A stretch of DNA of 64,000 nt from contig NZ_CABPSK010000002.1 of assembly GCF_902459645.1 (NCBI RefSeq), positions 1,302,001 through 1,366,000 of the forward strand, written 5' to 3'. The notes under the pieces were generated by a model. It was not told the origin of the DNA. It was given only the letters and a program-made list of their open reading frames with translations, and ran no database searches. This DNA comes from Pandoraea pneumonica. Its GTDB lineage: Bacteria; Pseudomonadota; Gammaproteobacteria; Burkholderiales; Burkholderiaceae. How positions within the stretch are numbered: the first letter of the stretch is position 1; the number at the start of each line of letters is the position of its first letter. Of this stretch, positions 6,988 to 27,514 are shown piece after piece. The position numbers and the translations under genes were made by a program.

Positions 6988-7788
6988 ATGAGTACGGTGC
7001 GCTTTCTCATCAGCCACCACGACACCAATCTGAAAGTGAATGGTCTCGTGCAAGCCTTGCCCGCCGGTAGCATGACGGCAACCAGTTCCGACGCCGTCAC
7101 CGATTCCCCAGATCGAACGACAGCCCACGACTTTCACGTGTGCGACTTGCAGGCGTTGTATCCCGATGTTGTCGACCTGCTCGACCGGCGCCCGCTCGGT
7201 GTCTTTCACCGGCAGGCCGCGCGTACGCTACTGCTCGAACCCAGCATGCTCGATGTGGCGGTCGCGTTGCAGAACATCGACCGCATGGCGATGCTGCGCT
7301 TCTTCTACGTTTATTGCCTGTGCCGCGATCAGCGATATTTCTCCGCGATGCTGCGGCAGTCGATCGCAGGCAGTCATTCGCTGTTCGATTTTGTCGAAGC
7401 CAATTTCCACAAACCCTGGCCTGTGGGGCGTTTAGCCGATGAATTCGGCATGCCGCTGCGCAAGTTCCGCTATCTCTTCCAACAAACCTATGGCATGCCC
7501 GCCAAGCAATGGCTGCTCGAGCGACGTTTGCGGCTCGCGCGCGATTTGCTGCTGTCGACTCGGCACAAGGTGCTCGACATTGCGCTGGAATGCGGTTTTA
7601 CGAATCACGCGCATTTCACCGACACGTTCCGCAAGCGCTTCGATTGCGCACCTACGGAAATCCGGCTGGGGACGCCGCCACTGCGTGGCGGGCAGCGCGT
7701 GGCGATGACCCGTACCGATGCTTACGCCGCGCTGCGCGCGGATCTCGTGGCCGGACATGGGGCACTGGTAGACGAGGAACTCGCGTGA
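6988..7788 (+). CDS. AraC-family transcriptional activator of the T3SS
   Basis: A 266-aa AraC/XylS regulator. The C-terminal two-helix-turn-helix domain spans about residues 135-230: FGMPLRKFRYLFQQTYGM for the first motif and ALECGFTNHAHFTDTFRKRF for the second. The N-terminal ~130 residues have no clear effector domain, as in the ExsA/VirF-type T3SS activators. A strong AGGAGG site precedes the ATG. Its TGA overlaps the GTG of the needle gene, so it heads and is co-transcribed with the sctF-sctW block, which suggests positive autoregulation. The target promoters are not known. Confidence 0.88.
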   Translation: MSTVRFLISHHDTNLKVNGLVQALPAGSMTATSSDAVTDSPDRTTAHDFHVCDLQALYPDVVDLLDRRPLGVFHRQAARTLLLEPSMLDVAVALQNIDRMAMLRFFYVYCLCRDQRYFSAMLRQSIAGSHSLFDFVEANFHKPWPVGRLADEFGMPLRKFRYLFQQTYGMPAKQWLLERRLRLARDLLLSTRHKVLDIALECGFTNHAHFTDTFRKRFDCAPTEIRLGTPPLRGGQRVAMTRTDAYAALRADLVAGHGALVDEELA

Positions 7789-8003
7789 ACGTCGAGGAAA
7801 TCAATAGCCAGTTCGGCGAGTCGTCGCGGCGTATTTCAGAACAGGCCATGCAGAGTTTGCGCACGCGTAAGCTCGACAATCCGTCCGACCTGATTGCCGT
7901 GCAGTTCGAATTGCAGCAAGCCACCACGATGTATGGCATGCACAGCGCGATCATCAAGCTCATCAAAGACACGCTGATGGGCATCATTGCCAAGATTGCA
8001 TGA
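7785..8003 (+). CDS. sctF: T3SS needle subunit SctF (SsaG-like)
   Basis: A 72-aa needle protomer, the right size for the family (about 70-85 aa). The C-terminal helix IIKLIKDTLMGIIAKIA and the middle segment LDNPSDLIAVQFELQQ closely match what I recall of Salmonella SsaG, less so Yersinia YscF, which places the system in the SPI-2 group. Starts with GTG at 7785, overlapping the araC stop. The needle polymerises outside the cell after export through the apparatus encoded here. Confidence 0.9.
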   Translation: MNVEEINSQFGESSRRISEQAMQSLRTRKLDNPSDLIAVQFELQQATTMYGMHSAIIKLIKDTLMGIIAKIA

Positions 8004-8431
8004 CGCCCGGCACCTTTGAAATCACACCGGTTCCGCAAGTTGCCAGCCCTCACGAAGTGGGGCGATGGCTCGATGCGTCGACCCGGCAGATGATCGTCGA
8101 ACTGGCTTTTGCAGGCGCGTGCCACGGCATGACGTGCGAAGCGCGAACGATTCTCGGCGCCTTGCCGCATCTCGTCGACGATACCGTCACACAGCATTGG
8201 CTTCATGCGGCGTTGCTGTTGGCGCTCGGCGATACCGATGCGGCGCGTAACGCGCTCGCCCGTGATGACGAGGGCGATGTTTCCGCCGCTGCCACAGTTA
8301 ATGGCGCATCGGATCTCGCCGCAATGCAGGCGCTGCATCAGTGGCTGGCCGCCATGCCAGCCGCGCCAGCAAGTGCGAACGATGCCTCGCGCAGCATTTC
8401 CACTTCCTTCTCCCGTATCGCCAAATCATGA
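8000..8431 (+). CDS. sctG: T3SS needle co-chaperone, SctG (SsaH/YscG-like)
   Basis: A 143-aa cytoplasmic protein rich in short amphipathic helices (EARTILGALPHLVDD, HAALLLALGDTDAARNAL), the TPR-like pattern of YscG-type proteins that hold the needle subunit soluble. It follows the needle gene with a 4-bp overlap and precedes the inner rod gene, the position of ssaH in SPI-2. The last ~30 residues are Ala/Ser-rich and probably disordered. Its partner is expected to be the SctE protein at 12717-12968. Family assignment is by position and helix pattern. Confidence 0.72.
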   Translation: MTPGTFEITPVPQVASPHEVGRWLDASTRQMIVELAFAGACHGMTCEARTILGALPHLVDDTVTQHWLHAALLLALGDTDAARNALARDDEGDVSAAATVNGASDLAAMQALHQWLAAMPAAPASANDASRSISTSFSRIAKS

Positions 8432-8775
8432 GTGTCGATTCGATTCACGATAGCGTGCAGCGACTTTCCGCTGCGAGTTTGCCATCGGCCACGCCAACGC
8501 CTTCTGACGACAGCGACGCTGCGCGTTTTGCCGGGGCTCTAGCGCATGCCACGCCGTTGCCTGAGCATCACTTGCTGAGTGCTGCCAGCCAGCTCGCCGA
8601 AAATACCAACGACTTGACGACGCGCGCGACGCTCGACAGCCGCACGATCAACGATCCGCAACAGCTGCTCGCGTCGCAGCGCGAACTGACTGAACGTGTG
8701 CTGTCGCTCGAACTCGTCGCGAAGGTTGCCGGTGCCACCACGCAAGGCGTGAACAAACTCGTTCACATGCAATGA
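8428..8775 (+). CDS. sctI: T3SS inner rod protein SctI
   Basis: A 115-aa protein with an unstructured N-terminus and a C-terminal amphipathic helix, LELVAKVAGATTQGVNKLVH. The ending closely resembles SsaI (SGAASQALNKL) and the general YscI/PrgJ rod family. A second family mark is the DPQQLLASQRELTERVLSLE segment before it. The start at 8428 is set by the ATGA overlap with sctG. It assembles inside the basal body below the needle. Confidence 0.85.
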   Translation: MSVDSIHDSVQRLSAASLPSATPTPSDDSDAARFAGALAHATPLPEHHLLSAASQLAENTNDLTTRATLDSRTINDPQQLLASQRELTERVLSLELVAKVAGATTQGVNKLVHMQ

Positions 8776-9596
8776 AGCGGGTATCGATACGTCGAAGTAC
8801 CGCAGTGCTGGTGCTCGCGCTTCTGGTGTCCGGCTGCAAAGAGGATTTGCATCGTGCGCTGGGCGAGACCGAAGCCAATCAGATGCTCGCGTTGCTCCTC
8901 ATTTCGGGCGTGGACGCCGATAAACGCGCCGAGACGACGGGCGCGACGGTGCGCGTGGCGCGAAGCGATTTTGTGCGAGCGGTCGAAGTGTTGCGTCAGC
9001 ACGGTTTGCCGCGCGAGAAGCGTGCGTCGGTGGAGGATGTCTTCCCACCGGGGCAACTCGTCAGTTCGCCTGTGCAGGAGCAGGCGAAGCTCGTCTACCT
9101 CAAAGAACAGCGTCTCGAGCGCATGCTCGCGGCACTCGACGGCGTGATGATCGCCGAAGTCTCGATTGCCCAAGTCCCTGTCGATTCCGCCGGGCGCGCG
9201 ACATTGCCGCCCGGCGTTGCCGTTTTCGTGAAATACAGCCCGGAGATCAACATGACGAAGCGCATGACCGATATTCGCAGCCTGATTCACGACAGCGTGC
9301 CGGGCGTCGCACCGGAGCGCATCAGTGTGGTGATGCAGCCCGCCGACTATCGGCTGCCGCGTTCCTCGCTGGCATCGGACAGCACGCGTGACGCAACCGC
9401 TGCAACCACACCAAGCGGTGCAAGCAACACGAACCGCACAAACAGTCCAAACAGTACAAACGGCAGCGAGCCAACTGGCCGTCGCTTATCGGGTCGGCAA
9501 TGGTTCTCAGGCATTGCCGCAACGCTCGTGCTGATCGTTGCGACGGCGCTCGGTCTGCGCATGCGTTCGAAGGGAAAGCGGGTAGCGCAGGCGTGA
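8772..9596 (+). CDS. sctJ: T3SS inner-membrane ring lipoprotein SctJ
   Basis: A 274-aa lipoprotein of the YscJ/PrgK/SsaJ family that forms the inner MS-like ring. There is a signal peptide with a lipobox, LVSGC, cysteine at about residue 22. Ring-building domains follow: EANQMLALLLISGVDA (RBM1) and the second domain around PPGVAVFVKYSPEINM. A single C-terminal membrane helix is at about residues 247-265 with a short basic tail. A Ser/Thr/Asn-rich linker (about 205-240) separates the domains from the helix. Confidence 0.97.
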   Translation: MKRVSIRRSTAVLVLALLVSGCKEDLHRALGETEANQMLALLLISGVDADKRAETTGATVRVARSDFVRAVEVLRQHGLPREKRASVEDVFPPGQLVSSPVQEQAKLVYLKEQRLERMLAALDGVMIAEVSIAQVPVDSAGRATLPPGVAVFVKYSPEINMTKRMTDIRSLIHDSVPGVAPERISVVMQPADYRLPRSSLASDSTRDATAATTPSGASNTNRTNSPNSTNGSEPTGRRLSGRQWFSGIAATLVLIVATALGLRMRSKGKRVAQA

Positions 9597-10252
9597 TGAT
9601 GCGATCACCCCATGCCAGCGCAATACCTGAGGTGGTCACACAACTCGCGAGGCTCATCTGGCAACCCGGGCGCTACATGCATGCCCGTTGGTGGCAGGTG
9701 TTGGACATGTCGGCGTGGCAGTCCGCCTACCGGCAGCGACCGGCAACACGAGCGTCGATCGACCGTCAACTGATTGCACGCCGCGGGTGGCCGGACAGCA
9801 CAAGCGCACTAGGTGCCGCGCTCACACCAAGCAACGCGGCCTGTGCCGTGCTTCACCTTGTTCCCAATCTCCGCCGTGTGGCCTTGGCTCACGGCGTTCG
9901 CGCGATGGGATGTCCGGACTACTTGCTGGTCGGACACTACCGGCGTGCGCTTGCGCCTTGGCTCGATGCACGGCAATGCGACCGGTTGCTGCTCACGCGT
10001 CGTGACTGGCCGACGCCCTCGGTATTGCCCCCGGAGCAACTCGTCGACGCGGCCCTTGCAACGACGGGCGCGTGGCTCGACGAGATGCAGGTGAGTGCCT
10101 CTCCCGATATTGCCGCCGCGCATCGTGCGATGCGTGTTTTGTTGCCGCCAGGTGATTCGTTCACGCGCTCGGGGCAGGTGCCCGTGTCGGATGCGTGGGC
10201 ACGGCTGGCGGCGTTGGAGAAGATGCTATGTATGTCGTCGACTACCCGCTGA
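9596..10252 (+). CDS. sctK: T3SS sorting-platform protein SctK
   Basis: A 218-aa cytoplasmic protein in the SctK position between sctJ and sctL, with the family-like pattern of Trp-rich N-terminus (HARWWQVLD) and LRRVALAHGVRAMGCPDYLL in the middle. SctK joins the SctQ pods to the inner ring. The start is not certain: GTG 9593, ATG 9596 and ATG 9599 are all possible. ATG 9596 overlaps the sctJ stop by one base. Family similarity is weak, as usual for SctK, so the call rests partly on order. Confidence 0.78.
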   Translation: MMRSPHASAIPEVVTQLARLIWQPGRYMHARWWQVLDMSAWQSAYRQRPATRASIDRQLIARRGWPDSTSALGAALTPSNAACAVLHLVPNLRRVALAHGVRAMGCPDYLLVGHYRRALAPWLDARQCDRLLLTRRDWPTPSVLPPEQLVDAALATTGAWLDEMQVSASPDIAAAHRAMRVLLPPGDSFTRSGQVPVSDAWARLAALEKMLCMSSTTR

Positions 10253-10917
10253 CGTCGATAGAACCGATTCATGGTCCGGTCCCACCGGGCCCTCTCATTA
10301 CGCGCGAGACGCTCGATCTGATGCGCGATCAATCCCGATGTCGTGACCAGTGGCTGGCGGAAGCACGTGCCTGCCGCGACGCCGCCTATGCGGAACGCGA
10401 GCGCATGCAGGCGGAAAGCGAAGCCATGCGTTCGGCAATGCTCGACGAGGCTCGCGCGCAGGCAACGCAGCACGCGACGCAGCAGGCGGAGGAAGCGCGG
10501 CGTACCGCGCTCGCCCAGGCGATCGATTGGCTAGTCGACGAAGCCGCCATGGAGCGCGCGACAGTGCAATCGTTGGAGCGACGCATTGCCGATGCGATGG
10601 TCGGTGCGCTTTCGAACTTCGTCGCCACGCTCGACATCGGCGAGCGTTTTGCGCATCGCGTGGCCAAAACCCTGCCTTCGCTCGTGCGCCACGGCGCCTT
10701 AGTGCTGCATGTGCCGCCAGTGCATCACGCGTCGGTGGCGAGTGCGCTCCGGCGGGCGGATATCGTGCTCGCGTGCGAGCCCGACCAGGCGCTCAGCGGT
10801 CATCGGGCACGCCTGGAAAGTGAATGGGTGACGCTTTGTATCGACCTGGATGCCGATCTTTCGGCGGTTGTCGACAGGTTGCGTGTGGTGCCGAATCTGG
10901 AGGTCGCTTATGGTTGA
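10228..10917 (+). CDS. sctL: T3SS stator protein SctL
   Basis: A 229-aa HrpE/YscL/FliH-type stator that links the ATPase to the cytoplasmic sorting platform. A long charged helix spans about residues 40-105, with coiled-coil-like Ala/Glu/Arg spacing (ERERMQAESEAMRSAMLDEA). A globular C-terminal domain that binds SctN follows. The ATG at 10228 lies inside the end of sctK (25-bp overlap). Confidence 0.88.
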   Translation: MYVVDYPLTSIEPIHGPVPPGPLITRETLDLMRDQSRCRDQWLAEARACRDAAYAERERMQAESEAMRSAMLDEARAQATQHATQQAEEARRTALAQAIDWLVDEAAMERATVQSLERRIADAMVGALSNFVATLDIGERFAHRVAKTLPSLVRHGALVLHVPPVHHASVASALRRADIVLACEPDQALSGHRARLESEWVTLCIDLDADLSAVVDRLRVVPNLEVAYG

Positions 10918-12043
10918 TGGCGTCCAGAACCCGGCGCAGGCAAGACCTGCCACGTCCAGCGAGAACCGCGCACTAGAGAGCATTCTCGATGACGAGATGC
11001 TCGAACTCGAAGGCGCGTTGCCGGACGTTGGGCGAAGCGCGGTACGCCAGCCCGCCAATGCTGTCGGCGGCTACGTCGCGATGATCGAAGCGGCCATCGC
11101 GCACGACGACGATGCGGCACTCGCCGAGTCGCAAGAGAATCTCAGCCTGGCGCTGGGAGTGCGTTTCCGGCGCCCGGGGCGAGCCGACCCGCGCGACGAC
11201 AAAGCCCGCGCCCGCGCGTTGCTGGAGCAACAGACGCGGCGCCTCTCACGCGTCAATCGCGCCCAGCTCGATGCACTGCGCCAGCAGCTACGCGATCTTC
11301 CTCACTCGCCCGACCCTGCCGAATTGATTCGCCGCGCCAGTTTGTCCGGCGGTCACGCCGCGCTAGTGGTCGCCGCGTGGCTTGCGGACGATAACCTGCA
11401 CCCAGCGGTGCGCGCCCGTTTGCGTCGTTTGCTCGGCGAACTGACATCGGGCGACGACTGGGCCATTGAAGCCTTCGCCGCGCTCGAATGCGGCAATCCC
11501 GGCACGGCGTTGCTCCAGCAACTCAAAACACTGTATCGCCAAGCCCACGGTCAGCAGCGCTCGCTCGTGCAGTGGTTCGACGAGTGCCGTCGGTTCGGGC
11601 AACGACGCGCCCGTTTGCGGGCACTGTTGCAGGCCCTGGGGCTGGAACTTGGGGCACAGAATGCCGACGCTGACACGGCCCATCTTGCGGGCGTGATCGA
11701 CGATCTACGGCGCGTCGTGTTGTTTCTCACCCTTGAGTCGACTTGCGAGCAATCCGCTGCGGCGCTGCGCACCGCCGGATATGCGGCATGCGAGACCGAC
11801 ACGATGATTGCTGAAATGCTCACTGTGCTCGACCAGCCGTGGGCGGGGGGCGAATGGTTTGCGCAGCGGGCTTCGTATCTGGGCATGACGTCGTTGGCCA
11901 CGCAGTACGCGTTCGCTCGGGAACTCACCCTTTTGGTGAAATCTGCGCACGAGGGGTGTTTTCGCGACGAGACACAACGCGACGCACTGAGCGAGGCGCT
12001 CGATACCTGGCGCACGAATCTCGCGCAAGACGAACTGTGGTGA
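10910..12043 (+). CDS. sctW: T3SS gatekeeper SctW (SsaL/YopN-TyeA fusion type)
   Basis: A 377-aa gatekeeper of the InvE/SsaL/YopN family that keeps effectors back until translocators are exported. The N-terminal 40 residues are flexible, the middle is all-helical, and the C-terminal ~90 residues (from about LTVLDQPWAGGEWF) look like the TyeA part, so this is the fused form. Overlaps sctL by 8 bp and is the last gene of the sctF block. In SPI-2 it acts with SsaB and SsaM; homologues of both are encoded nearby. Confidence 0.85.
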   Translation: MVDGVQNPAQARPATSSENRALESILDDEMLELEGALPDVGRSAVRQPANAVGGYVAMIEAAIAHDDDAALAESQENLSLALGVRFRRPGRADPRDDKARARALLEQQTRRLSRVNRAQLDALRQQLRDLPHSPDPAELIRRASLSGGHAALVVAAWLADDNLHPAVRARLRRLLGELTSGDDWAIEAFAALECGNPGTALLQQLKTLYRQAHGQQRSLVQWFDECRRFGQRRARLRALLQALGLELGAQNADADTAHLAGVIDDLRRVVLFLTLESTCEQSAAALRTAGYAACETDTMIAEMLTVLDQPWAGGEWFAQRASYLGMTSLATQYAFARELTLLVKSAHEGCFRDETQRDALSEALDTWRTNLAQDELW

Positions 12044-12072
12044 CGTTTGACGCCGGGGTGGCGCGTTGTGAA

Positions 12073-12147: not shown

Positions 12148-12561
12148 TCAAGCCCGCAGGTGTTCGCGGCACAGTTTGATGCGGTCGTAGAAGTCCGTGA
12201 GCGCTTGAGCGAATGGCTCCGGCTCGGAGGAAGCGTCCTCGTTCACCAGCGCGTGGAGCACGAGCCGGTTGTCTTGTGCACGCAGTTGCACGTGACCGGT
12301 GATGGCCCATTCGGCAGGTTCGATCAGCAGTTGGAGAAGGCGCTCGCTGTTGGCGCGATGCAGTCGCGCGGCCTCGTCGGTGGCGACAATCGAGTGAAGT
12401 CCGCAGGTATGCTGTTCCAGCGTTTCCACAATGATGCTCGGCGACGCGTTGAACGTCAGTTCGATAGGGGAGTGATTGTCGACGGAGTGGATCTTGCCCG
12501 GATCGCAGCCGATCAGCTTGAGAGCGTCTACAAGGGTCTGCGCGAGGTCGTGACGTGGCAT
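12148..12561 (-). CDS. putative T3SS class I chaperone (CesT-like)
   Basis: A 137-aa acidic protein whose length, helix-strand pattern and location suggest a CesT/InvB-type secretion chaperone: an N-terminal helix LAQTLVDALKLIG, strands such as PIELTFNASPSIIVE, and a C-terminal amphipathic helix FAQALTDFYDRIKLCREHL. It is the last gene of the minus-strand T3SS block, after sctE. No effector gene sits beside it, so its client is unknown. The start at 12561 is chosen because upstream in-frame residues are basic and unlike the rest. I do not recognise a specific orthologue. Confidence 0.6.
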   Translation of the reverse strand: MPRHDLAQTLVDALKLIGCDPGKIHSVDNHSPIELTFNASPSIIVETLEQHTCGLHSIVATDEAARLHRANSERLLQLLIEPAEWAITGHVQLRAQDNRLVLHALVNEDASSEPEPFAQALTDFYDRIKLCREHLRA

Positions 12562-12968: not shown

Positions 12969-14301
12969 AAGTGGACTCCGGTGTCAGTGGCAAATAAAAC
13001 AATCGCTCGTGCGCCGCAATCGACACGCCATCGGCCGCAACGGCCACGACATGAGCACCGCCTGCCAGCCTTGCCCCGGTCATGAGCCGCGTTCCGTCGG
13101 CGAGAGTGATATGGGGTGCGTCGGGCGATCCGCCAATGCTGGCGAGCGGCGCAGGCAGTCCTGTCTCGGCCAGCGTCGGCATACGTACGGGCAAAGGTTC
13201 GATGCGCAGACGCAGCGTGCGTGATGCGTCGTTCCATGTGTCGGCGAGTGACTGCAACGCCGCTTCACGGCGGGGCGACAGCGGCCCGGTGATTCGCCAG
13301 CCGTCGCGCTCGCGCGTCACGTTGATCCCGCGTAGCTGACCGGCGTCTTTCAGGTGTTGCACGACGGTATCGAAGCCGTCGGCTTCGTCGTTGTCGACGC
13401 GCCAGCCGTGCGGCAGGTCGAGTCCATCGAGGGCGTCCGACGTGGCTCGCCAACGTGCGTCTGCTACGAACGCCCCGCTAATCACGATTTCTCCGCCTGG
13501 CGCGAGGCCGACATAGGCCGAACCGTAGCCGTATAGCCTGAGCAGCGTTTGAACGGATTGGATCAGGTCGGCCGGGCACCATGTCTCATCCCGGATGGCA
13601 CGTCCCGACTTGCGTGCTTCGGCGCGTAGGCGCGCGCGTGCATCCTCGGGGACGCAGCCACCCGATAACTGCACCGCGTTTTCTGAAACCGACACCGAGA
13701 CGCCGGGTGCAATGCGAGCGGCCAGCAAGTTGAGTGCGTCGGCGTCGGCCGGGGGCGCGATGACGTTGGCGGCGCCGGTGCGCCACACCATTGCCCCGGC
13801 TGCCATGACGGCGAGCGAAGTGAATGCCGCCGCTAACCAAGTCATCGTTCGAAGGCGGGCTGGCCGCGACCATCGCGGGGACGCGGTCGTTTGCGAAGGC
13901 AAGGGCATCGATGTGTCGAGCGGTGGGGCGGTCGAGACGACACGTGCAGGGCGTCTGGGTAGCGGCACGGGCAGATCGGCGTCTGCATCGCTCAACCAGA
14001 GGCCGAGGCCAGCCAGATCGATCACCGAGTGCAGCGGCAACAGCGGCGCGGCATCGACGCCTATTTCGCGCTCCTCGCTGTCCTCGTGCAGCGCCAGCGG
14101 TGCGCCGTCGATCCAGACCGGGACGGCCGTCAACAAGCGCACGCCGTCGTCCCCGACATGCAGCAGCGCCGTGACGCCGCATTCCAATGCCATCGCGATA
14201 TCGGAGTCCTCGGCGCCCAGCGAGAACTCGCCCGGTGGCAGAGGCAATGCGCGCCCGGCGAGCGGGCCGTCGAGCAGGGTGAGCGTGTACATCGTCGTCA
14301 T
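12943..14301 (-). CDS. sctD: T3SS inner-membrane ring protein SctD
   Basis: A 452-aa bitopic protein of the YscD/PrgH/SsaD family that makes the outer part of the inner ring. The N-terminal ~110 residues form the cytoplasmic FHA-like domain, followed by a Pro/Thr linker. One membrane helix is at about residues 154-171 (WLAAAFTSLAVMAAGAMVW). The periplasmic part has repeated BON-like ring-building domains (for example VSVSENAVQLSGGC). The start overlaps the sctC stop (ATGA). Confidence 0.9.
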   Translation of the reverse strand: MTTMYTLTLLDGPLAGRALPLPPGEFSLGAEDSDIAMALECGVTALLHVGDDGVRLLTAVPVWIDGAPLALHEDSEEREIGVDAAPLLPLHSVIDLAGLGLWLSDADADLPVPLPRRPARVVSTAPPLDTSMPLPSQTTASPRWSRPARLRTMTWLAAAFTSLAVMAAGAMVWRTGAANVIAPPADADALNLLAARIAPGVSVSVSENAVQLSGGCVPEDARARLRAEARKSGRAIRDETWCPADLIQSVQTLLRLYGYGSAYVGLAPGGEIVISGAFVADARWRATSDALDGLDLPHGWRVDNDEADGFDTVVQHLKDAGQLRGINVTRERDGWRITGPLSPRREAALQSLADTWNDASRTLRLRIEPLPVRMPTLAETGLPAPLASIGGSPDAPHITLADGTRLMTGARLAGGAHVVAVAADGVSIAAHERLFYLPLTPESTYDATTDAD

Positions 14302-20062: not shown

Positions 20063-20063
20063 G

Positions 20064-21461
20064 ATGCGCCAACCCGATGCCATTCGTGTTGCGAATGCGT
20101 TGCGGCGCTCGCTCAAAGCGCGGCGCAAAGCGTGTGACGAGTGGCGTGCGGCCCCGGGGCGCGATATCCCGCACGGACGCATCGACAAAGTGACGCCGAA
20201 TGCGCTGCGTGCCCGACTGCCGGGGGCGTCGCTGGGCGAGCAGTGCCGCATTGTGTCGCCGGTTATCGACGCCGAGGTCATTGCGGTGGAAGGCCCGCAC
20301 GTCTGGCTGTCACCTTATGCGGAGCCGCGCGGCGTCGCCAATGGCGCGCTGGTGTACGCGCTCGGCACACCGTCGCAGGTCGCCGTTGGCGAGCATCTGA
20401 CAGGGCAGGTGCTCGACGGTCTGGGGCGCAGATTGGACGGGGCGAACGAATCTCCACTGCCGGATGACTTGTGTGAAAGGGCACCAGAAGACTTCCCACC
20501 GCGCGGCATCGTTTGGCGTGCGCTAGAGGCCCCGCCGCCACCGGCGATGACGCGTGCGCTGGTGAGCGCGCCGCTGCCGCTTGGCATCCGTGCCATCGAC
20601 GGGTTACTGACGTGCGGCCGGGGGCAGCGGCTCGGCATTTTCGCGGCGGCCGGGGGCGGCAAAAGCACGTTGCTTGCGATGATGTGTCAGGGCACGCAAG
20701 CCGACGTGATCGTGCTCGCGTTAATTGGCGAGCGCGGGCGGGAAGTGCGTGAGTTTCTCGAACACGCGCTCACACCTGCGGCCAGAGCGCGCACGGTGTG
20801 CGTCGTGGCGACCTCGGATCGTCCGGCGCTAGAGCGCATGAAGGCCGCCTATACCGCGACGGCCATCGCAGAGGCGTTTCGCGATCAGGGCAAGGACGTG
20901 CTGCTGCTGATGGACTCGCTCACTCGCTTCGGCCGCGCGGTACGAGATATCGGCATGGCCGCAGGCGAGCCGCTGGGGGCCACTAGCGGGCTTCCGCCGA
21001 GCTTCTATGCCCGTCTTCCGCGATTGCTCGAGCGTGCCGGTACCGCCGAGCGCGGTAGCATCACCGCGTTCTACACGGTGCTGGTCGAGGGGGACAACCT
21101 CGATGAGCCGCTGGCCGATGAAGTCCGCTCGATTCTCGACGGTCATATCGTGCTCTCGCGCCGTCTCGCGCAAGAAAACCACTACCCCGCCATCGATATC
21201 GCAGCGAGCCTGTCGCGTGTGATGGGCAACGTGGCTGGCAAAGGACACGTCGCGGCGGCCGCGCGAATACGCCGTGCGATGGCGCTTGCCACCGAGGTCG
21301 AGTTGCTCGTGCGCGTCGGTGAATATCAAACCGGGCAAGACCCGGATACGGACGATGCACTCGCGCGTGTTTCCGCTATCAAGGCGTTTCTGTGCCAGTC
21401 GCAGGGCGATATCGCGCCGTTCGACGAGACCCAAGCATGGCTCGCCCGTCTCGCGAGTTGA
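20064..21461 (+). CDS. sctN: T3SS ATPase SctN
   Basis: A 465-aa F1-beta-like ATPase that strips chaperones and energises export. The P-loop is [12 protein letters not shown] (normally GVGKST, so the Val before GK is Gly here), followed by [11 protein letters not shown] and the Walker B strand [19 protein letters not shown] lies near the C-terminus. The start at 20064 is one base after the sctV stop and gives the usual length. The C-terminal domain binds SctO and SctL. Confidence 0.97.
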
Positions 21462-21850
21462 AGGACATGGCACAGATCGCCGCGTTGGCGTCACTCGCCC
21501 GGCGACGAGAGGCGAGCTTGCGCGCCGCCGTGGCACACGCTGTCCAATCGCTCGACGCCGCGGAGGCAACGCTAGCGCAGCGGCGCCGCGTGTACGAGGC
21601 ACAACGGCAACGCTGGCACGACGCGCTCGCGCGTAGCGGGGTGTACGGTCAGCGCGCGCTTGGGACAGCCAGCCATGGTGTCGAGGCCGAACGCGCGGCA
21701 CTGGCCGGTGCGCTCACGACTAAAGAAGCCGCCGCCGCAAGTGCGGCGCAAGCACGGTCGAATTTGCAAGCGCAGCGCGCGCTGCTGCAAGAAAACGCAC
21801 GCAAGCAGGAAAAGCTTCGCGAATTGCTGGCGTCGTTGCAGGCGTCGTAG
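21437..21850 (+). CDS. sctO: T3SS ATPase stalk protein SctO
   Basis: A 137-aa protein predicted to be one long coiled-coil hairpin (rich in Ala, Arg, Gln and Glu with heptad spacing from about residue 20 to the end), the form of YscO/FliJ/SsaO, which turns inside the ATPase ring and touches SctV. It lies directly after sctN. ATG 21437 overlaps sctN by 25 bp; ATG 21467 is an alternative. Sequence similarity is low, as is normal for this family. Confidence 0.75.
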
Positions 21851-21946: not shown

Positions 21947-22399
21947 ATGAGCTCCATCCGCCGCAATGGCATGTCAGCCGAGGCATTCGCCAATATGGGG
22001 GCCAATTTGTCGGGATCGCATCGAAACACGTGCGAAGGCACGGGCCCACGGCGGCAAATGGAGGATGACGACGAGCGGGAGTTCACCCTAAGCGTCGAGA
22101 CGACACCGCGTGTCACGGGGCCCGGCGATGTGCTTCGTTGGCTTCGGGTGTGGCATGCGCGCCAGGAACAAGCGTGGGATGGCGGGAACGCGTTGCGCAT
22201 CTGCGTGCATGGTGGCGTGCTCGACGAGATGGTCGTGGAAGCCCGGCGCGGGTTGCATGGCGTGACGATCAGTTTGCTATCGCCGCGCTTGACGCTATAC
22301 CGGCGCTTGCTGACGCAACGCGGCCGCCTTGCCCGGACGATGACGTGGCGGCTCGGTTTGCCGGTAACGGTGGAAGTCGAGGCACGTTATGCCCCCTGA
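21947..22399 (+). CDS. sctP: T3SS needle-length/switch protein SctP (short form)
   Basis: A 150-aa protein between sctO and sctQ, the position of sctP. The second half (LRICVHGGVLDEMVVEARRG, then VTISLLSPRLTLYRRLLTQR) resembles the C-terminal switch domain of YscP/HpaP. The N-terminal ~60 residues are polar. It is much shorter than YscP (about 515 aa) or SpaN and nearer to EscP size, so its ruler segment is small. Assignment rests on position plus this weak similarity. Confidence 0.65.
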   Translation: MSSIRRNGMSAEAFANMGANLSGSHRNTCEGTGPRRQMEDDDEREFTLSVETTPRVTGPGDVLRWLRVWHARQEQAWDGGNALRICVHGGVLDEMVVEARRGLHGVTISLLSPRLTLYRRLLTQRGRLARTMTWRLGLPVTVEVEARYAP

Positions 22400-23600
22400 C
22401 ACGCGAGCGCCGGACGTAGTGCTTAGCCAACTGTTCGGTGGGTCGCTGGGCGGTGCTAGCAGTGTTTCCTTCGTTCAAGACGATATGCAGGTGCACGTTG
22501 GTTGGCTGCACGTGGGCGGCGATGGCCTGATCGTCGCCGCGCGTGTCGACCAAGGTCCGGTTGGCGAGTTGCGCTTCTGGTGCGACACGCAGCAGTGGTG
22601 CGATTGGCTGGCCCCGTGGCTGCCCGTCCCCTCGTTCGACGCGTTGCCGCAGGCATGGCTCGACATCGCGGCGTCGTTGACGTTGTCAGGCGCGTCCGAG
22701 GAGGCGGGCGAGGGGGCATTCGGGGCCGTCGACAAATCGTTTGACGACTCGTGCGACGCCGCAGCGTATCCCGCTTATCCCGCCGATTCCGCGTATTCGG
22801 CGTATGCCGATGCCTGGCCGAGCGCTACCCAGTTGACGCCTGGCGCCGTGACGCTCGAATGGCGCGTCGGCATGGTATTGCAGCGGGAGGGCCGACGGCT
22901 CGCATTGGCTTGGCTCACCGGCGACGGCTCGCAGGACGAGGCGAGCGCATGGCTTCGCGAGCGATGCGCGCGCGCGATGCCTGGCGCACAGCCGCTCGAT
23001 CCGGCGGGTGTACCGCAACGCGACGGCGTCTTAGTCGCTGGCTGGGCGGATATCTCAAGCGCGCAATGGGATGCCTTGGGTGATGGCGACGCCGTAATTC
23101 TCGACAAGAGCGCCGACGTGGCGAACGGTGCGTATTGGGTCGTCGATGGCGATTACGCGCTGGCTTACCCCGGCAACGCCGCCGCCCAGCGTGGCGCGGT
23201 CAATGCCGCCGAGGTTCTTCGGTTCGACGACTGCCCCTTTGCGACAACGGATGGCACCTCTCCCGCACGGGTCTTCGCGGTGCTGACGACTCAACCTTTC
23301 CCGGTGCCCACGCTCGACGCGTGGAGAACAGGCAGGCTCCCCGACATACGGTCGTGCCACGCGACACACGGGGTCGCCTCATCGCCCGACGCGCCCGTGC
23401 TGCATACGACGCGTGTGACGCTGTGGCGCAACGGCATCGCGTGCGGCGCGGCCCGTCTGCTGCGTTTCGACGATGGTCGACTGGCGGTGTGCCGCGAAGG
23501 CGAACGCAAAGGCGACATGTCCATCGCAGCGCACGACTCCCCCCAAAAGCCGACCAATTCGGGTGGCGACCTGATGGGCGTGTACCCGTTGTCCCCCTAA
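22389..23600 (+). CDS. sctQ: T3SS cytoplasmic ring protein SctQ
   Basis: A 403-aa protein in the SctQ (YscQ/SsaQ) position. The C-terminal third has a diverged SPOA fold (VPTLDAWRTGRLPDI, then VTLWRNGIACGAARLLRFDD and GRLAVCREG), the domain that builds the sorting-platform pods. Near residues 115-140 is a compositionally odd, repeat-like stretch alternating Ala/Tyr with Pro or Ser. A second SPOA domain is not obvious. Overlaps sctP by 11 bp. Confidence 0.78.
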   Translation: MPPDTRAPDVVLSQLFGGSLGGASSVSFVQDDMQVHVGWLHVGGDGLIVAARVDQGPVGELRFWCDTQQWCDWLAPWLPVPSFDALPQAWLDIAASLTLSGASEEAGEGAFGAVDKSFDDSCDAAAYPAYPADSAYSAYADAWPSATQLTPGAVTLEWRVGMVLQREGRRLALAWLTGDGSQDEASAWLRERCARAMPGAQPLDPAGVPQRDGVLVAGWADISSAQWDALGDGDAVILDKSADVANGAYWVVDGDYALAYPGNAAAQRGAVNAAEVLRFDDCPFATTDGTSPARVFAVLTTQPFPVPTLDAWRTGRLPDIRSCHATHGVASSPDAPVLHTTRVTLWRNGIACGAARLLRFDDGRLAVCREGERKGDMSIAAHDSPQKPTNSGGDLMGVYPLSP

Positions 23601-23659
23601 GATCGCGACACTTCAACGCCGCACATGCGTGCTGGCCTCGGATGTTCAACGGAGTCTGT

Positions 23660-24310
23660 ATGTCCCTGCTCGACCACCCGGTGCAGCTCGTGGTGTTGCT
23701 CTCGCTGCTCTCGATCTTGCCGTTGCTGGTGGTGCTCGGGACGGCCTTTCTGAAACTGGCGGTGGTGTTCGCGCTATTACGCAACGCGCTCGGCACACAG
23801 CAGATTCCCCCCAACATTGCGATCTATGGTCTTTCGCTCGTGCTGACCTGTTTCATCATGGCCCCCGTCGTTTTCGACATCGAAGCCAATCTCGCGAAGC
23901 GGCCTGTCACGCTATCGTCGCCGAGTGCCGTGGCCGATGCGGACGCGGGCATTCTCGTGCCTTATCGCGCTTTCCTCACGCGTCATACCGATCCGCGCCA
24001 ACGCGAGTTCTTCGCGGGCATTGCCGCCGACACCTGGCCGGAAAAGCATCGTGCGCGTATCGGCCCCGATTCGCTGCTCGTGCTCATGCCCGCTTTCACC
24101 CTGAGCCAACTGGCAGAGGCCTTCAAGATCGGGCTGCTGCTCTATCTCCCCTTCGTCGTCATCGATCTGGTGATTTCGAACATCCTGCTCGCCATGGGGA
24201 TGATGATGGTCTCGCCCATGACCATTGCGCTGCCGTTCAAGTTGCTGGTGTTCGTGATGATGAACGGCTGGGAGCAATTGGTGCGCCAGTTGCTGCTTTC
24301 CTACGCATAA
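23660..24310 (+). CDS. sctR: T3SS export apparatus protein SctR
   Basis: A 216-aa FliP/YscR/SsaR-family membrane protein of the export gate, with four hydrophobic helices. Conserved segments are FLKLAVVFALLRNALGTQQI, PAFTLSQLAEAFKIGLLLYL and FVVIDLVISNILLAMGMMMV. The ATG at 23660 follows a GGAG site; the frame is open upstream but that part lies inside sctQ. With SctS and SctT it forms the helical entry pore. Confidence 0.96.
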   Translation: MSLLDHPVQLVVLLSLLSILPLLVVLGTAFLKLAVVFALLRNALGTQQIPPNIAIYGLSLVLTCFIMAPVVFDIEANLAKRPVTLSSPSAVADADAGILVPYRAFLTRHTDPRQREFFAGIAADTWPEKHRARIGPDSLLVLMPAFTLSQLAEAFKIGLLLYLPFVVIDLVISNILLAMGMMMVSPMTIALPFKLLVFVMMNGWEQLVRQLLLSYA

Positions 24311-24316
24311 GCCGAC

Positions 24317-24583
24317 ATGAGTGAAGCGATCGTCGTCAAGTTCACGAGCGAAATGCTCTGGCTCACGCTGCTGCTGTCGTTGCCCACGGTCATTGTGGCG
24401 TCGGCGGTCGGTGTGTTCGTGTCGCTGGTGCAGGCACTCACGCAAGTGCAGGATCAGACGGTGCAGTTTCTGATCAAGCTGCTTGCCGTGTCGATCACGC
24501 TGGTGGTGACCTATGGCTGGATGGGCAACGTGTTGCTCAACTATGCCGGTAGCGCGTTCGAGCAAATTAGCCGGATGCAATGA
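24317..24583 (+). CDS. sctS: T3SS export apparatus protein SctS
   Basis: An 88-aa FliQ/YscS-family protein with two membrane helices (LLLSLPTVIVASAVGVFVSL and LLAVSITLVVTYGWMGNVLL) joined by the conserved loop QALTQVQDQTVQF. Usual length. It lies between sctR and sctT, as in all systems of this type. Confidence 0.96.
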   Translation: MSEAIVVKFTSEMLWLTLLLSLPTVIVASAVGVFVSLVQALTQVQDQTVQFLIKLLAVSITLVVTYGWMGNVLLNYAGSAFEQISRMQ

Positions 24584-24599
24584 CCGGAGCCCGCCCCCT

Positions 24600-25466
24600 A
24601 TGTCGTCGATCATGACCTCGCTGGGCCCTGCGCTGGGCGCTGTGGGCGCCTTGGACGACGCGGCGTTCGCGCGCCACTGGGCAGACCTGTACGACTGGCT
24701 GCTCGCGTGGGCGGTGGCGATGCTGCGTCCGCTGGGCATTGCGATGCTGTTGCCGGTGTTCTCGCCGGGCATGCTCGGCGCAGGGATGCTGCGCAATGCC
24801 CTCGTGTTGGCGCTCGCGTTGCCGGTCGTGCCAATGGTGCACGCCGGGGCCGACATCGCGCCGCAATGGGGCGCGTGGGCCATGGTGATCCTGGGGGAGT
24901 TGAGCGTCGGCCTGTTGCTCGGGTTTGCGGCCGCGTTGCCGTTCTGGGCGGTTGATATGACGGGGTACGTGATCGACACCATTCGCGGCGCGTCGATGGC
25001 GAGCGTGCTCAACCCGCTCATGGGCGCGCAGTCGTCGATCTTCGGCATCGCGTTGACGCAAATGCTGTGTGTGCTGTTCTTCATTACCCCCGCCGCGCAC
25101 GCCGTGCTAAGCGCGCTGTACGACTCATACGACGCGCTGCCGGTCGGCACGTCCTGGCATTGGCAAGAGGCGGGGGTGCCTTGGCTGCTCACGCTGTGGC
25201 AGGCGATGCAAACGATGTGCGTCGCGGTCGCGCTGCCCGCCATGGTGGTGATGGTGCTCGTCGACATGGCGATGGGTTTCATCAACCGTGCCGCCCAGCA
25301 GCTCAACGTGTTCTTCCTCGCTATGCCGGTCAAGAGTGCGATGGCGCTGCTCGTCACGCTGGCGAGCCTGCCGTTTGCCATTGCGGTGCCATTGGCCCAT
25401 TGGTACCGACTGCCGGAGGGCTTCAGAGCGTGGGTCGTGGCGGCGCTTGCGCAAGGGGGAGGGTGA
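24600..25466 (+). CDS. sctT: T3SS export apparatus protein SctT
   Basis: A 288-aa FliR/YscT/SsaT-family protein with about six to eight membrane helices. ARPL-type start of the core (MLRPLGIAMLLPVFSPGMLG) and GYVIDTIRGASMASVLNP are the family segments. ATG 24600 was chosen since the upstream open frame overlaps sctS. It completes the R5-S4-T1 export core. Confidence 0.94.
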   Translation: MSSIMTSLGPALGAVGALDDAAFARHWADLYDWLLAWAVAMLRPLGIAMLLPVFSPGMLGAGMLRNALVLALALPVVPMVHAGADIAPQWGAWAMVILGELSVGLLLGFAAALPFWAVDMTGYVIDTIRGASMASVLNPLMGAQSSIFGIALTQMLCVLFFITPAAHAVLSALYDSYDALPVGTSWHWQEAGVPWLLTLWQAMQTMCVAVALPAMVVMVLVDMAMGFINRAAQQLNVFFLAMPVKSAMALLVTLASLPFAIAVPLAHWYRLPEGFRAWVVAALAQGGG

Positions 25467-25472
25467 GCGCCG

Positions 25473-26579
25473 ATGAGCGAAAAGAACCAACCGCCCACAC
25501 CGAAGAAGATTCAAGACGAGCGCAAGAAGGGGCGCGTCGCGAAGAGCGCCGACCTGGCTGTCTGCGCGCAACTCGGCATCGTGCTGGCCTGGCTCGTCTT
25601 CGAAGGCCCGGCCCTTTACGTGGCGTGTATGGGGCTGGTGCAGCGCATGCTGCTCGTGCTTGGCGACCCGGTAGACGAAGCGGTGCGTGGCCTGTTGGTG
25701 CCGTCGCTGTTGCTGCTCCTGCGTTTTTGCGGCGGGCTGGCCGTCGTGCTGATCGTATGCACTTGGCTGGTGATGGTGCTGCAAATCGGCGCGCTGGTGG
25801 CGCCCGAAGCGATCACGCCGAAGTACGAGCGCATCGATCCCGTGGCAAAGGCCAAGCAATTGTTTTCGCTTCAGTCGCTCTTCGAATTCGCGAAGTCGCT
25901 GCTCAAGGTCGCGGTGCTGGGGACGGTTTTCTTCTATCTGATTCGCCAATACACGCCGTCGCTCGCGGTGCTGCCGCAGTGCGGCGCGGATTGCGGGCTC
26001 ACGCTCACGGCGCGCTTGCTGTTCTGGCTGATGTCGGCGCTCGTCATCGCCTATGTGGTGTTCGGTGCGCTCGATTTTGCTTTTCAGAAATACAACTTGC
26101 ACAAGCAACTGATGATGTCGCACGACGAGATTAAGCGCGAATACAAGGAGATCGACGGCAATCCGGAAATCAAGCACAAGCGTCGTGAAATTCATCGGGA
26201 GACGATCGAGAGCGGCAGTCTTGCCAACAACGTGAAGCGCTCGACCGTGGTCGTGCGTAACCCGACGCGGCTTGCCGTCTGCCTGCGCTATGTCGCGGGG
26301 GAGACGCCGGTGCCTTGTGTCATCGAGAAGGGACGCAACGCACGCGCGCGCACCATCGTTGCACTCGCTGAGCGCGAGGGTATTCCGGTTGTCGAGCACA
26401 TTCCGGTGGCACGGCGGCTGATGGCGGAAGTCGATATCGATGCGCCCATTCCTGCGGATCTATTCGATGTGGTGGCGTCGATACTGCGCTTGGCCCTCGA
26501 TTTGCCTTACGAAGCGCAGGACGCCGAGGGTGCACAGGCGGACAAGGAGAAGCGCCCGGACGAGCGTGGGCGGCGATGA
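25473..26579 (+). CDS. sctU: T3SS substrate-switch protein SctU with NPTR in place of NPTH
   Basis: A 368-aa FlhB/YscU/SsaU-family protein. The N-terminus PPTPKKIQDERKKGRVAKSA is typical; four membrane helices follow, then a cytoplasmic domain. In nearly all family members this domain cleaves itself within an NPTH motif. Here residues 263-266 read N-P-T-R (codons at 26259-26270), so the His is Arg. The Asn-Pro bond and neighbours (VVVRNPT, then RYVAGETPVP) are kept, so cleavage may still occur. The C-terminal ~25 residues are acidic and basic mixed. Stop overlaps the next gene (ATGA). Confidence 0.95.
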   Translation: MSEKNQPPTPKKIQDERKKGRVAKSADLAVCAQLGIVLAWLVFEGPALYVACMGLVQRMLLVLGDPVDEAVRGLLVPSLLLLLRFCGGLAVVLIVCTWLVMVLQIGALVAPEAITPKYERIDPVAKAKQLFSLQSLFEFAKSLLKVAVLGTVFFYLIRQYTPSLAVLPQCGADCGLTLTARLLFWLMSALVIAYVVFGALDFAFQKYNLHKQLMMSHDEIKREYKEIDGNPEIKHKRREIHRETIESGSLANNVKRSTVVVRNPTRLAVCLRYVAGETPVPCVIEKGRNARARTIVALAEREGIPVVEHIPVARRLMAEVDIDAPIPADLFDVVASILRLALDLPYEAQDAEGAQADKEKRPDERGRR

Positions 26580-27514
26580 GAATATCGACGCTCGGCGCTT
26601 GGATTGCCCTCGCGCTCGTGTGCGCACCAGCGGTCGCGGCGAGCGCGCAGACGGACATCGCACTGCCGCTGCATCCGCGCATGACCGATGCCGGAGTCGA
26701 GGTCCCTGAGCGGAAAGCACCGTCAAAGGCATCGACGGTGCCGTCGCCTGTTTCGTCGCCGGTGCCTTCGCCGATATTCACTGCCGACCCAGCGCCCGCA
26801 TCCACTGGCACGACAAATCAACAACTCAACGCGATTGCGCCCGCACCTTCGCCGTCATTACCGTTCGACACGCTGGTTCAAACGACCGCGCGCGACTATT
26901 CGCTCGACGCGGCGCTGCTGCATGCGATGGTCAGCGTGGAGTCGGGCTACGACGCACTCGCGGTCTCGCCCAAGGGGGCCATAGGTTTGATGCAGGTGCG
27001 GCCGCAGACCGGGGCGCGCTTCGGGTTTCGACGTCTGGAAGACCCGGCCGAGAATTTGCGGGCCGGGGCGTCCTACTTGCAATGGTTGCTCACCCGCTTC
27101 GACGGGGATTTGTCGCTGGCGCTGGCGGCGTACAACGCAGGGGAGGGCGCGGTGCTGCGTTACGGGCGGCAAGTGCCGCCGTTTCGCGAAACACAGGATT
27201 ACGTGCGCAAAGTGATGGCGGGGTATTCGCGGCTGACGGTCATGCCGTCGAAAAACACGGAAACCGTCGTTGCGCCTGCTTCGCCAAGCGCTACCGCCGC
27301 GACGCCCACCGATGTGGCTAAGGTTCGGGCGCTGCCGCGCGATCGGCGCGATGGCCATGGAAGCCGTGAGAGCGGCGATGTGCGGGCGTGGCAGATTTTG
27401 CGGGGGCTTGGCGCCCTGGTGACGCGCAGCCCGTCAAAGCGGACCGCGCCCACGATGGGCCGCGATCAACCGGCTGTCGTCATGCCAGCGAGCCAGACTC
27501 GCCGGTCGCCATGA
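26576..27514 (+). CDS. lytic transglycosylase of the T3SS (IagB-like) with long extensions
   Basis: A 312-aa periplasmic peptidoglycan-cutting enzyme that would open the wall for the needle complex. A signal peptide covers about residues 1-24. The SLT domain is at about 97-215: SVESGYDALAVSPKGAIGLM with catalytic Glu122, then LALAAYNAGEGAV. IagB-type partners are usually about 150-160 aa. This one has an extra Pro/Ser-rich N-terminal linker (about 40-95) and a basic, low-complexity C-terminal tail of about 90 residues. Coupled to sctU by ATGA; last gene of the island. Confidence 0.9.
   Translation: MRISTLGAWIALALVCAPAVAASAQTDIALPLHPRMTDAGVEVPERKAPSKASTVPSPVSSPVPSPIFTADPAPASTGTTNQQLNAIAPAPSPSLPFDTLVQTTARDYSLDAALLHAMVSVESGYDALAVSPKGAIGLMQVRPQTGARFGFRRLEDPAENLRAGASYLQWLLTRFDGDLSLALAAYNAGEGAVLRYGRQVPPFRETQDYVRKVMAGYSRLTVMPSKNTETVVAPASPSATAATPTDVAKVRALPRDRRDGHGSRESGDVRAWQILRGLGALVTRSPSKRTAPTMGRDQPAVVMPASQTRRSP

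What the first reader, a model, noticed from the sequence alone, without database searches (positions are those of the whole stretch)
6988..27514. A full SPI-2 (Ssa-Esc) type III secretion apparatus in a betaproteobacterium
Every core part is here: SctF, G, I, J, K, L, W, E, D, C, V, N, O, P, Q, R, S, T and U. The needle end (IIKLIKDTLMGIIAKI), rod end, an SsaB/SpiC-like gene before sctC, an SsaM-like gene before sctV and an SsrB-like regulator all fit the Salmonella SPI-2 family, not the Hrp or Ysc/Bsc families common in Burkholderiales. This grouping was read by eye from remembered sequences.
Basis: partly seen in the sequence, partly recalled or inferred. Interest (0 to 1): 0.75.

Follow-up and report, generated by a model that had tools for sequence, protein, structure and literature searches.

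The report
Pandoraea injectisome with detached translocon
This stretch encodes a complete Salmonella-SPI-2-type molecular syringe in the bacterium Pandoraea; the syringe type is already known there, but the parts that pierce the host cell turn out to sit more than a million bases away, at a second site where they seem to have been exchanged as a block.

Summary
Window 6988-27514 carries an SPI-2 (Ssa-Esc) type III secretion apparatus; trees of SctV, SctN, SctC and SctJ agree. The genus is Pandoraea. Family membership is not new: PMC9967039 places a Pandoraea T3SS in Ssa-Esc and says it shares no Salmonella translocons.

Added here: an SPI-2-type translocon operon (SseA-like, EspA-like, SscA, SseC, SseD, SseE) lies 1.27 Mb away on the same contig. 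Counted by its SseC-like gene, it is in 28 of 28 genus genomes that have the apparatus island (one gutted by deletion) and in 0 of 4 without. In the four sister-genus genomes opened it adjoins araC of the apparatus, so detachment looks derived. The Pandoraea island also lacks SsrA and has an InvB/SpaK-type chaperone gene. In the window's lineage five measured cassette genes are 24-39% identical to those of G016, while apparatus genes are 55-98%, suggesting replacement in place. Secretion and function are untested.

The parts
6988..7788 (+). AraC-family regulator, first gene of the apparatus operon
   Evidence: NCBIfam AraC-type hits, best 1.7e-17, below cut-off; stands beside the translocon operon in sister genomes
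7785..8003 (+). sctF needle subunit (SsaG-like)
   Evidence: TIGR02105 43.0 bits over cut-off 41.7; PF09392 2.1e-14
8000..8431 (+). sctG/ssaH needle co-chaperone
   Evidence: TIGR02498 1e-14, 54.5 of 56.15 bits; PF06287 over cut-off
8428..8775 (+). sctI inner rod
   Evidence: TIGR02497 8.4e-11 over cut-off; SsaI model 3e-4 below cut-off; PF17001
8772..9596 (+). sctJ inner ring lipoprotein
   Evidence: TIGR02544 202 bits over cut-off; SsaJ model 199 of 260; tree
9593..10252 (+). sctK sorting platform
   Evidence: PF13327 2e-34
10228..10917 (+). sctL stator
   Evidence: TIGR02499 7.5e-11, below cut-off
10910..12043 (+). sctW gatekeeper (SsaL/YopN-TyeA-like)
   Evidence: NF011872 3e-29 below cut-off; TyeA domain TIGR02511 over cut-off
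12148..12561 (-). InvB/SpaK (Spa15)-type effector chaperone, not matched in the other SPI-2 loci as far as fetched
   Evidence: NF011864 4.3e-22 below cut-off, PF03519 over cut-off, PDB SpaK/InvB 2fm8 1.5e-13; only match in the genome
   Evidence: TIGR02501 40.0 over cut-off 38.25; PF08988
12943..14301 (-). sctD inner ring
   Evidence: TIGR02500 162 bits over cut-off 86
14298..15863 (-). sctC secretin
   Evidence: NF011873 (recalled as SsaC) 601 over cut-off 524; tree
15860..16315 (-). ssaB-like orfB, predicted class I chaperone (YscB-like) partner of the gatekeeper
16736..17395 (+). SsrB-like response regulator without an SsrA gene beside it
   Evidence: NF011896 258 over cut-off 242; SsrA-type kinase beside ssrB in sister genome G068; no full-length SsrA match in this genome
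17532..17990 (+). ssaM-like (SycN-like) chaperone
   Evidence: NF011880 3.8e-4, TIGR02503 0.0021, both below cut-off
17987..20062 (+). sctV export gate
   Evidence: NF009363 952 of 993, TIGR01399 over cut-off; tree with SsaV; PDB SsaV best
20064..21461 (+). sctN ATPase
   Evidence: NF005295 600 bits of 690; PF00006 and PF18269; tree
21467..21850 (+). sctO stalk, by position
   Evidence: PF07321 0.041, below cut-off
21947..22399 (+). sctP needle-length regulator, by position only
   Evidence: no library match; place and length
22389..23600 (+). sctQ cytoplasmic ring, divergent
   Evidence: TIGR02551 2e-4, below cut-off; no Pfam match
23660..24310 (+). sctR
   Evidence: TIGR01102 277 bits over cut-off
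24317..24583 (+). sctS
   Evidence: TIGR01403 over cut-off; NF011877 100.5 of 104
24600..25466 (+). sctT
   Evidence: TIGR01401 over cut-off; NF011876 219 of 275
25473..26579 (+). sctU switch protein
   Evidence: NF009364 (recalled as SsaU) 432 over cut-off 381
26576..27514 (+). lytic transglycosylase of the island
   Evidence: PF01464 2.6e-25

Best explanation
The island encodes an SPI-2-family injectisome: secretin and rings (SctC, D, J), export gate (SctR, S, T, U, V), ATPase and sorting platform (SctN, L, K, Q, O), needle and rod (SctF, I) with needle co-chaperones SsaE and SsaH, and a gatekeeper (SctW) probably held by two class I chaperones (orfB and SsaM-like). It works with a translocon made at a second site more than 1 Mb away: an EspA/SseB-like filament, SseC- and SseD-like pore proteins, their chaperones (SseA-like, SscA) and SseE. 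The machine locus and the host-contact cassette were neighbours around araC in the ancestor; Pandoraea carries the cassette at one fixed remote site, has no SsrA kinase beside SsrB and has a SpaK-type effector chaperone gene. In the window's lineage the cassette was probably replaced as a block by a distant one of the same type. Shown by sequence: gene content, family, separation, co-occurrence, neighbourhood in sister genera, divergence. Inferred: that the two loci build one machine, that it secretes, and that the divergence is a replacement.
For: Family. Remote cassette in this genome at C2:51440-56096: PF04888 SseC over cut-off; NCBIfam SseC-type 105 bits, SscA 70, SseE 89 and 46 bits, all below cut-off; SctB2 5e-4 and EspA 9e-4 below cut-off. 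In Pandoraea G029 (L085) EspA 1.8e-11 and SseC 5e-31 are over cut-off, and the EspA alignment finds solved EspA at 1.9e-13. Co-occurrence, by the SseC-like gene: cassette in 28 of 32 genomes, window-type SctV in 27 of 32; the odd genome G004 keeps both ends of the island with sctW to sctQ deleted; G023 and G030 show the empty site. G016 and G029 have no other non-flagellar SctV match and still carry the cassette. Linkage elsewhere: 4 of 4 sister genomes opened have the cassette beside araC; 2 more have SctV and SseC about 19 kb apart by coordinates. Replacement: and (SctV 90-91% but SseC-like 26-27% to G015, G016, G022).
Against: No expression, secretion or interaction data. No shared promoter motif between the two loci was found. 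The genomes without the island may represent only one or two evolutionary events, so the co-occurrence is not 32 independent cases, and a very divergent cassette could have been missed. The EspA, SctB, SscA and SseE assignments in the window's own cassette are below curated cut-offs. In five named relatives (L093, L095, L096, L101, L102) no cassette was matched in the stretch fetched around SctV, and in G375 the two genes are 45 kb apart, so linkage outside the genomes opened is unresolved. SsrA is also missing beside ssrB in sister genome G121, so its absence is not special to Pandoraea. In the SscA and SseE trees the window's cassette groups with Pandoraea (85/72 and 95/96), so very fast divergence in place is not excluded.
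Confidence: 0.82

Rival explanations
1. The remote cassette belongs to the other T3SS of this genome (SPI-1 type, about C2:501000-523000) or is a free-standing relic, and the window's apparatus works without a translocon, for example as an export machine.
For: The loci are 1.27 Mb apart; G004 keeps the cassette although its apparatus is gutted; the genome has a second T3SS.
Against: The second T3SS has its own SipB/SipC/IpaD-type translocon next to it (PF06511 4e-58, PF16535 3e-20, PF09599 3e-9) and falls with the Salmonella arizonae and Burkholderia dolosa systems in the trees. The cassette is of the SPI-2 kind, is the neighbour of the same apparatus in four sister genomes, and is present in G016 and G029, which have no other injectisome SctV.
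Confidence: 0.1
2. The window's cassette was not replaced but diverged very fast in place, for example under host-driven selection on surface-exposed parts.
For: SseE and SscA trees keep the window's cassette with the common Pandoraea type (95/96 and 85/72). One EspA-like protein is down to 30% identity between G016 and G029.
Against: Five measured cassette genes are low together, including cytoplasmic chaperones (SscA 39%, SseA-like 36%), and the gene content differs: one 330-residue EspA-like protein where most other cassettes read have two shorter ones. G016 against G022 stays at 85-95%. In the SseC tree a clade of the common type plus the window without G028 is rejected at p-AU 0.038, with long branches in play.
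Confidence: 0.25
3. The grouping with SPI-2 is an artefact of sampling and the system belongs to another family.
Against: Four separate core genes agree, the nearest solved structure is SsaV, and the accessory set SsaE, SsaH, EspA, SscA, SseC, SseD, SseE agrees.
Confidence: 0.02

Closest known systems
Salmonella SPI-2 T3SS (Ssa-Esc family)
   Same: Core phylogeny; gene runs orfB-sctC-sctD-ssaE, sctF-ssaH-sctI-sctJ-sctL-sctW and ssaM-sctV-N-O-P-Q-R-S-T-U; SsrB; translocon operon in the order SseA-like, EspA/SseB-like, SscA, SseC, SseD, SseE (Salmonella order recalled)
   Different: Translocon over 1 Mb away; no SsrA found; araC, SpaK-type chaperone gene and lytic transglycosylase in the island; no linked effectors recognised
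   Same: Same apparatus set with araC and, in three of the four, the lytic transglycosylase; homologous translocon operon
   Different: Translocon adjoins araC; SsrA-type kinase in G068, none beside ssrB in G121, G394 and G108 not scored; no SpaK-type gene matched
Pandoraea faecigallinarum DSM 23572 T3SS, reported in Ssa-Esc (PMC9967039, passages read)
   Same: Same genus and family assignment; gene order different from Salmonella noted
   Different: The paper says the cluster shares no Salmonella effectors or translocons; the translocon found here is at another locus
Chlamydiales and plant Hrp T3SSs with translocator genes outside the main cluster (recalled, not tested)
   Same: Translocators can be unlinked from the apparatus
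   Different: Other T3SS families; here the separation appears derived from a linked ancestor, at a fixed site

Membership tests
Ssa-Esc (SPI-2) T3SS | Core proteins fall in the Ssa-Esc clade | tested here: met
   SctV, SctN, SctC, SctJ trees
Ssa-Esc (SPI-2) T3SS | Best similarity to SPI-2 members over other families | tested here: met
   PDB SsaV first; models recalled as SsaC, SsaU and SsrB over cut-off, 11 other SPI-2 models matched below cut-off
Ssa-Esc (SPI-2) T3SS | Needle co-chaperone pair SsaE/SsaH | tested here: met
   TIGR02501 over cut-off, TIGR02498 just below; PF06287 and PF08988 over cut-off
Ssa-Esc (SPI-2) T3SS | SsaB/SsaM chaperone pair for the gatekeeper | tested here: inconclusive
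   SsaM model 3.8e-4 below cut-off; orfB has a YscB-like predicted fold but no SsaB model hit
Ssa-Esc (SPI-2) T3SS | EspA/SseB filament with SseC and SseD pore proteins | tested here: met
   At a remote site. SseC over cut-off in this genome; EspA over cut-off in Pandoraea G029 but below in this genome; SctB2 below cut-off in both
Ssa-Esc (SPI-2) T3SS | Secretes and translocates effectors into host cells | not testable with these tools
   needs experiments
Salmonella SPI-2 regulatory pair SsrA-SsrB (not family-defining: LEE lacks it, recalled) | SsrA sensor kinase together with SsrB | tested here: not met
   SsrB over cut-off; no full-length SsrA match in the genome, only partial kinase or receiver matches, best 38% identity
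Inv/Mxi-Spa (SPI-1) T3SS | Core proteins in the SPI-1 clade | tested here: not met
   Only the genome's second T3SS falls there; the window shares just the SpaK-type chaperone

The most novel reading that the evidence does not exclude
Pandoraea has split an SPI-2 injectisome into two separately evolving modules: a vertically inherited machine locus and a host-contact cassette at a fixed remote site where whole translocon sets are exchanged without matching change in the machine. The window's species would carry such an exchanged cassette.
Probability: 0.55. Interest if true: 0.7.

Novelty: new variant of a known kind. Interest (0 to 1): 0.5.

Why it matters
It qualifies a published statement that the Pandoraea Ssa-Esc cluster shares no Salmonella translocons, shows that a widespread SPI-2 machine of this genus has a second locus that cluster-based surveys miss, and offers a natural series (linked in sister genomes, detached in Pandoraea, gutted in one species, apparently exchanged in another) to ask how far the host-contact part of an injectisome can evolve apart from its engine. 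Pandoraea species are found in cystic fibrosis patients (PMC5635052, abstract in a search listing) and an endofungal strain is reported (PMC10939042, passages), so the natural host of the system is an open question.

Tried and rejected
SPI-1 origin because of the SpaK-type chaperone gene: rejected by the trees.

Co-regulation by a shared promoter motif: looked for and not found. An 11-base word common to translocon promoters is absent from the window even with one mismatch, and shared 8- or 9-mers between the loci are few and differ between the three genomes compared.

SsrA elsewhere in the genome: only partial kinase and receiver matches. Donor of the window's cassette: 398 family genomes (a sample of the family, at most 3 candidates scored in each) gave no match above 40% identity to its SseC-like protein apart from itself; donor unknown.

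Identity figures for SseE, and for orfB and araC outside the first pair, rest on short, badly cut stretches and are not used; searches are used instead. SctU there covers 141 residues in the pairs with G016. An SscA-like gene and an SseA-like gene in the window's own cassette were first missed and found later. The cassette of G028 gave no SscA or SseE match. One search stopped half-way and was completed; one search built profiles but annotated nothing because of a wrong filter, and one search did the annotation.

Claims about print rest on searches of the held library (one search listed 25 of 45 papers); subscription papers are missing from it, and supplements could not be read.
Full report
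Observation. From araC at 6988 to a lytic transglycosylase ending at 27514 the window holds an uninterrupted set of T3SS apparatus genes in three runs: araC-sctF-ssaH-sctI-sctJ-sctK-sctL-sctW (+), orfB-sctC-sctD-ssaE-spaK-like (-), and ssrB-like, ssaM-like-sctV-N-O-P-Q-R-S-T-U-transglycosylase (+). Profile matches name nearly all of them; SctQ is weak, SctO marginal and SctP is named by position. The flanks read as ordinary chromosomal genes, by my own labels from the translations: mnmA-like and gltS-like on the left, purB-like and secD/F-like on the right.

Genus. The window lies in a 5.85 Mb genome. The closest named SctV in the one genome-collection scan is Pandoraea bronchicola at 80%, and 27 of 32 genomes of the window's genus (itself included) carry an SctV 75-100% identical. 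The genus is therefore Pandoraea. The 1.2 Mb genome G018, which matched neither locus, is probably the reduced endosymbiont Ca. P. novymonadis (inference from size; that paper was seen as a search listing and one passage).

Family. SctV (49 rows), SctN (36), SctC (20) and SctJ (25) were placed in maximum-likelihood trees. In each the Pandoraea proteins fall with SPI-2-type systems: SsaV of Salmonella (SctV tree only), Yersinia, Lonsdalea, Shewanella, Citrobacter youngae, Cupriavidus, Caballeronia, Paludibacterium and Pseudomonas farris, as each gene was available. The clade has SH-aLRT 92 in the SctV tree (98 with Glomeribacter), 95 in SctN (Glomeribacter included), 100 in SctC and 97 in SctJ (quick method, SH-aLRT only). 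The second T3SS of the genome falls with Salmonella arizonae, Burkholderia dolosa and Symbiopectobacterium in SctV, SctN and SctC, and with the latter two in SctJ; I take this group as SPI-1 type (label recalled; its translocon genes agree). Among PDB chains SctV ranks SsaV first with 649 bits. NCBIfam models that I recall as SsaC, SsaU and SsrB are passed; the models for SsaE, SsaH, SsaI, SsaJ, SsaK, SsaL, SsaM, SsaN, SsaS, SsaT and SsaV (some of these names recalled) are matched below their cut-offs.

The missing translocon. The SseC family matches at only two places in this genome: inside the SPI-1-type T3SS, and at C2:52612-53799, 1.27 Mb from the window's sctV on the same contig. The second place is an operon on the minus strand at C2:51440-56096: an SseA-like protein of 115 residues (named by place and 33-36% identity), an EspA-like protein of 330 (Pfam EspA 9e-4, below cut-off), SscA-like (NCBIfam SscA model 1.2e-19, below cut-off), SseC-like (Pfam SseC 2.6e-23, over cut-off; NCBIfam 2.9e-30, below), SseD-like (Pfam SctB2 'SPI-2' 5e-4, below cut-off) and SseE-like (2.6e-25, below cut-off). 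In Pandoraea G029 the corresponding operon gives EspA 1.8e-11 over cut-off, a second EspA-like protein at 0.005, a TPR chaperone, SseC 5e-31 over cut-off and SctB2 0.0019, and an EspA alignment of 12 sequences finds solved EspA at 1.9e-13. Profile comparison links the window genome's EspA- and SseD-like proteins to the families of the common type (83% probability, E 8.5e-6; 95%, E 4e-8).

Do the two loci belong together? Counted by the SseC-like gene, the cassette is present in 28 of the 32 genomes of the genus. Of these, 27 have a window-type SctV. The 28th, G004, has no orthologous SctC (best 28% identity); its island keeps araC to part of sctW and part of sctQ to the transglycosylase, with what lies between deleted. 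The four genomes without a window-type SctV or island (G018, G023, G025, G030) also have no SseC-like match, and G023 and G030 show gltS-like followed directly by the gst and purB genes. The sites of G018 and G025 were not opened. G016 and G029 have no non-flagellar SctV match other than the window type, and both have the cassette. These absences may be few events, so this is support, not proof. In 10 of 10 other genomes fetched, and in the window's own, the cassette sits at the same site between a hydantoinase/oxoprolinase-like gene and a transporter or chemoreceptor-like gene (labels by eye). In three single-contig genomes, taken as circular, the two loci are 1.36 Mb (G016), 1.14 Mb (G020) and 1.28 Mb (G021) apart.

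Linkage elsewhere. A search of 398 family genomes with the window genome's SseC-like protein found 10 genomes of other genera, each with a best SctV match of 46-63%. I opened four. In G394, G108, G121 and G068 the cassette stands next to araC, divergent from the apparatus operon. In G366 and G352 SctV and SseC are about 19 kb apart, in G375 about 45 kb; in G208, G059 and G039 they lie on different contigs and cannot be judged. Two Yersinia loci and Lonsdalea also have the cassette within the 10 kb fetched upstream of sctV; Shewanella L097 and Enterobacteriaceae L103 show an SseE-like gene near the end of the fetched stretch; L093, L095, L096, L101 and L102 show none in the stretch fetched. So Pandoraea probably derives from a linked arrangement, with the break at the araC edge.

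Other features of the Pandoraea island. The G068 locus has a kinase that passes the NCBIfam model recalled as SsrA (929 over 852) between ssaM and ssrB. The window has none there and its genome has only partial matches of at most 38% identity; G121 also has no gene between ssaM and ssrB, so loss or absence is not unique to Pandoraea. The SpaK/InvB-type chaperone gene (12148-12561) is in all 8 other Pandoraea islands read and in P. bronchicola. It was not matched in the 11 named loci L093-L103 as far as fetched or in the four sister genomes, only in two loci of the SPI-1 group.

Cassette exchange. The window's SctV is 90-91% identical to G015, G016 and G022, yet its SseC-like protein is 26-27% identical to theirs; those three share 94-95% with each other and 56-66% with the other genomes of the common type. 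Per gene, the window against G016 gives 55-98% over the apparatus but SseA-like 36, EspA-like 27, SscA 39, SseC 29 and SseD 24%, where G016 against G022 gives 85-95%. The number of EspA-like genes differs too. G028 has a third, again distant cassette (SseC-like 27-30% to all others). The window's SseC-like protein joins G028's in a tree (98/96), and the tree that holds the window with the common type without G028 is rejected at p-AU 0.038; but the SscA and SseE trees keep the window beside the common type (85/72 and 95/96), and long branches make all of this unsure. Replacement in place by a distant cassette of the same type is the better reading; fast divergence is the rival.

Print. PMC9967039 (passages) places the T3SS of P. 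faecigallinarum in Ssa-Esc, notes a different gene order and says it shares no Salmonella effectors or translocons. PMC8565462 (passages) finds SPI-2 types sporadically in Burkholderia s.l. and does not contain the word Pandoraea. PMC5064223 (passages) names T3SS genes such as ssaJ, escN and ssaT on Pandoraea plasmids. PMC10939042 (passages) lists T3SS genes in an endofungal P. sputorum. PMC8490769 (one passage) mentions SPI-1 homologues in Pandoraea. In the listings of searches and the passages read I saw no description of a remote translocon in Pandoraea.

Verdict. Family call supported and already known. The remote translocon, its co-occurrence with the apparatus, the apparently derived detachment, the missing SsrA and the divergent cassette of the window's lineage are what this study adds. 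Function is inferred throughout.

Noticed in passing
L004/L005 = G000:C2:~501000-523000: A second T3SS of SPI-1 type with its own SipB, SipC and IpaD-like translocon in the window's genome.
   Followed up: partly
L072 (G019:C2:227001-247000); also G012:C2:143942-145963: Two Pandoraea genomes carry a further SPI-2-type SctV (58-59% identity) on a second contig, possibly a plasmid; that of G019 groups with Paludibacterium in the trees.
   Followed up: no
L073 (G020:C1:4319001-4339000): A Pandoraea T3SS whose SctV groups with Bordetella sp. BOR01, Diaphorobacter and Lampropedia.
   Followed up: no
L172 (G004:C2:1046001-1064000): Apparatus island gutted by a deletion from sctW to sctQ while both flanks and the remote cassette remain.
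   Followed up: yes
L110: The SctV of the fungal endosymbiont Candidatus Glomeribacter gigasporarum falls at the edge of the SPI-2 clade and its SctN within it.
   Followed up: no
window 61047-64000: tRNA-Ser followed by a stretch of lower G+C (0.56 at 62001-64000) with an ORF of low third-position G+C, perhaps the edge of a genomic island.
   Followed up: no
window 22389-23600: SctQ is unusually divergent (55% identity to G016 where SctR has 98%) and has no Pfam match.
   Followed up: no
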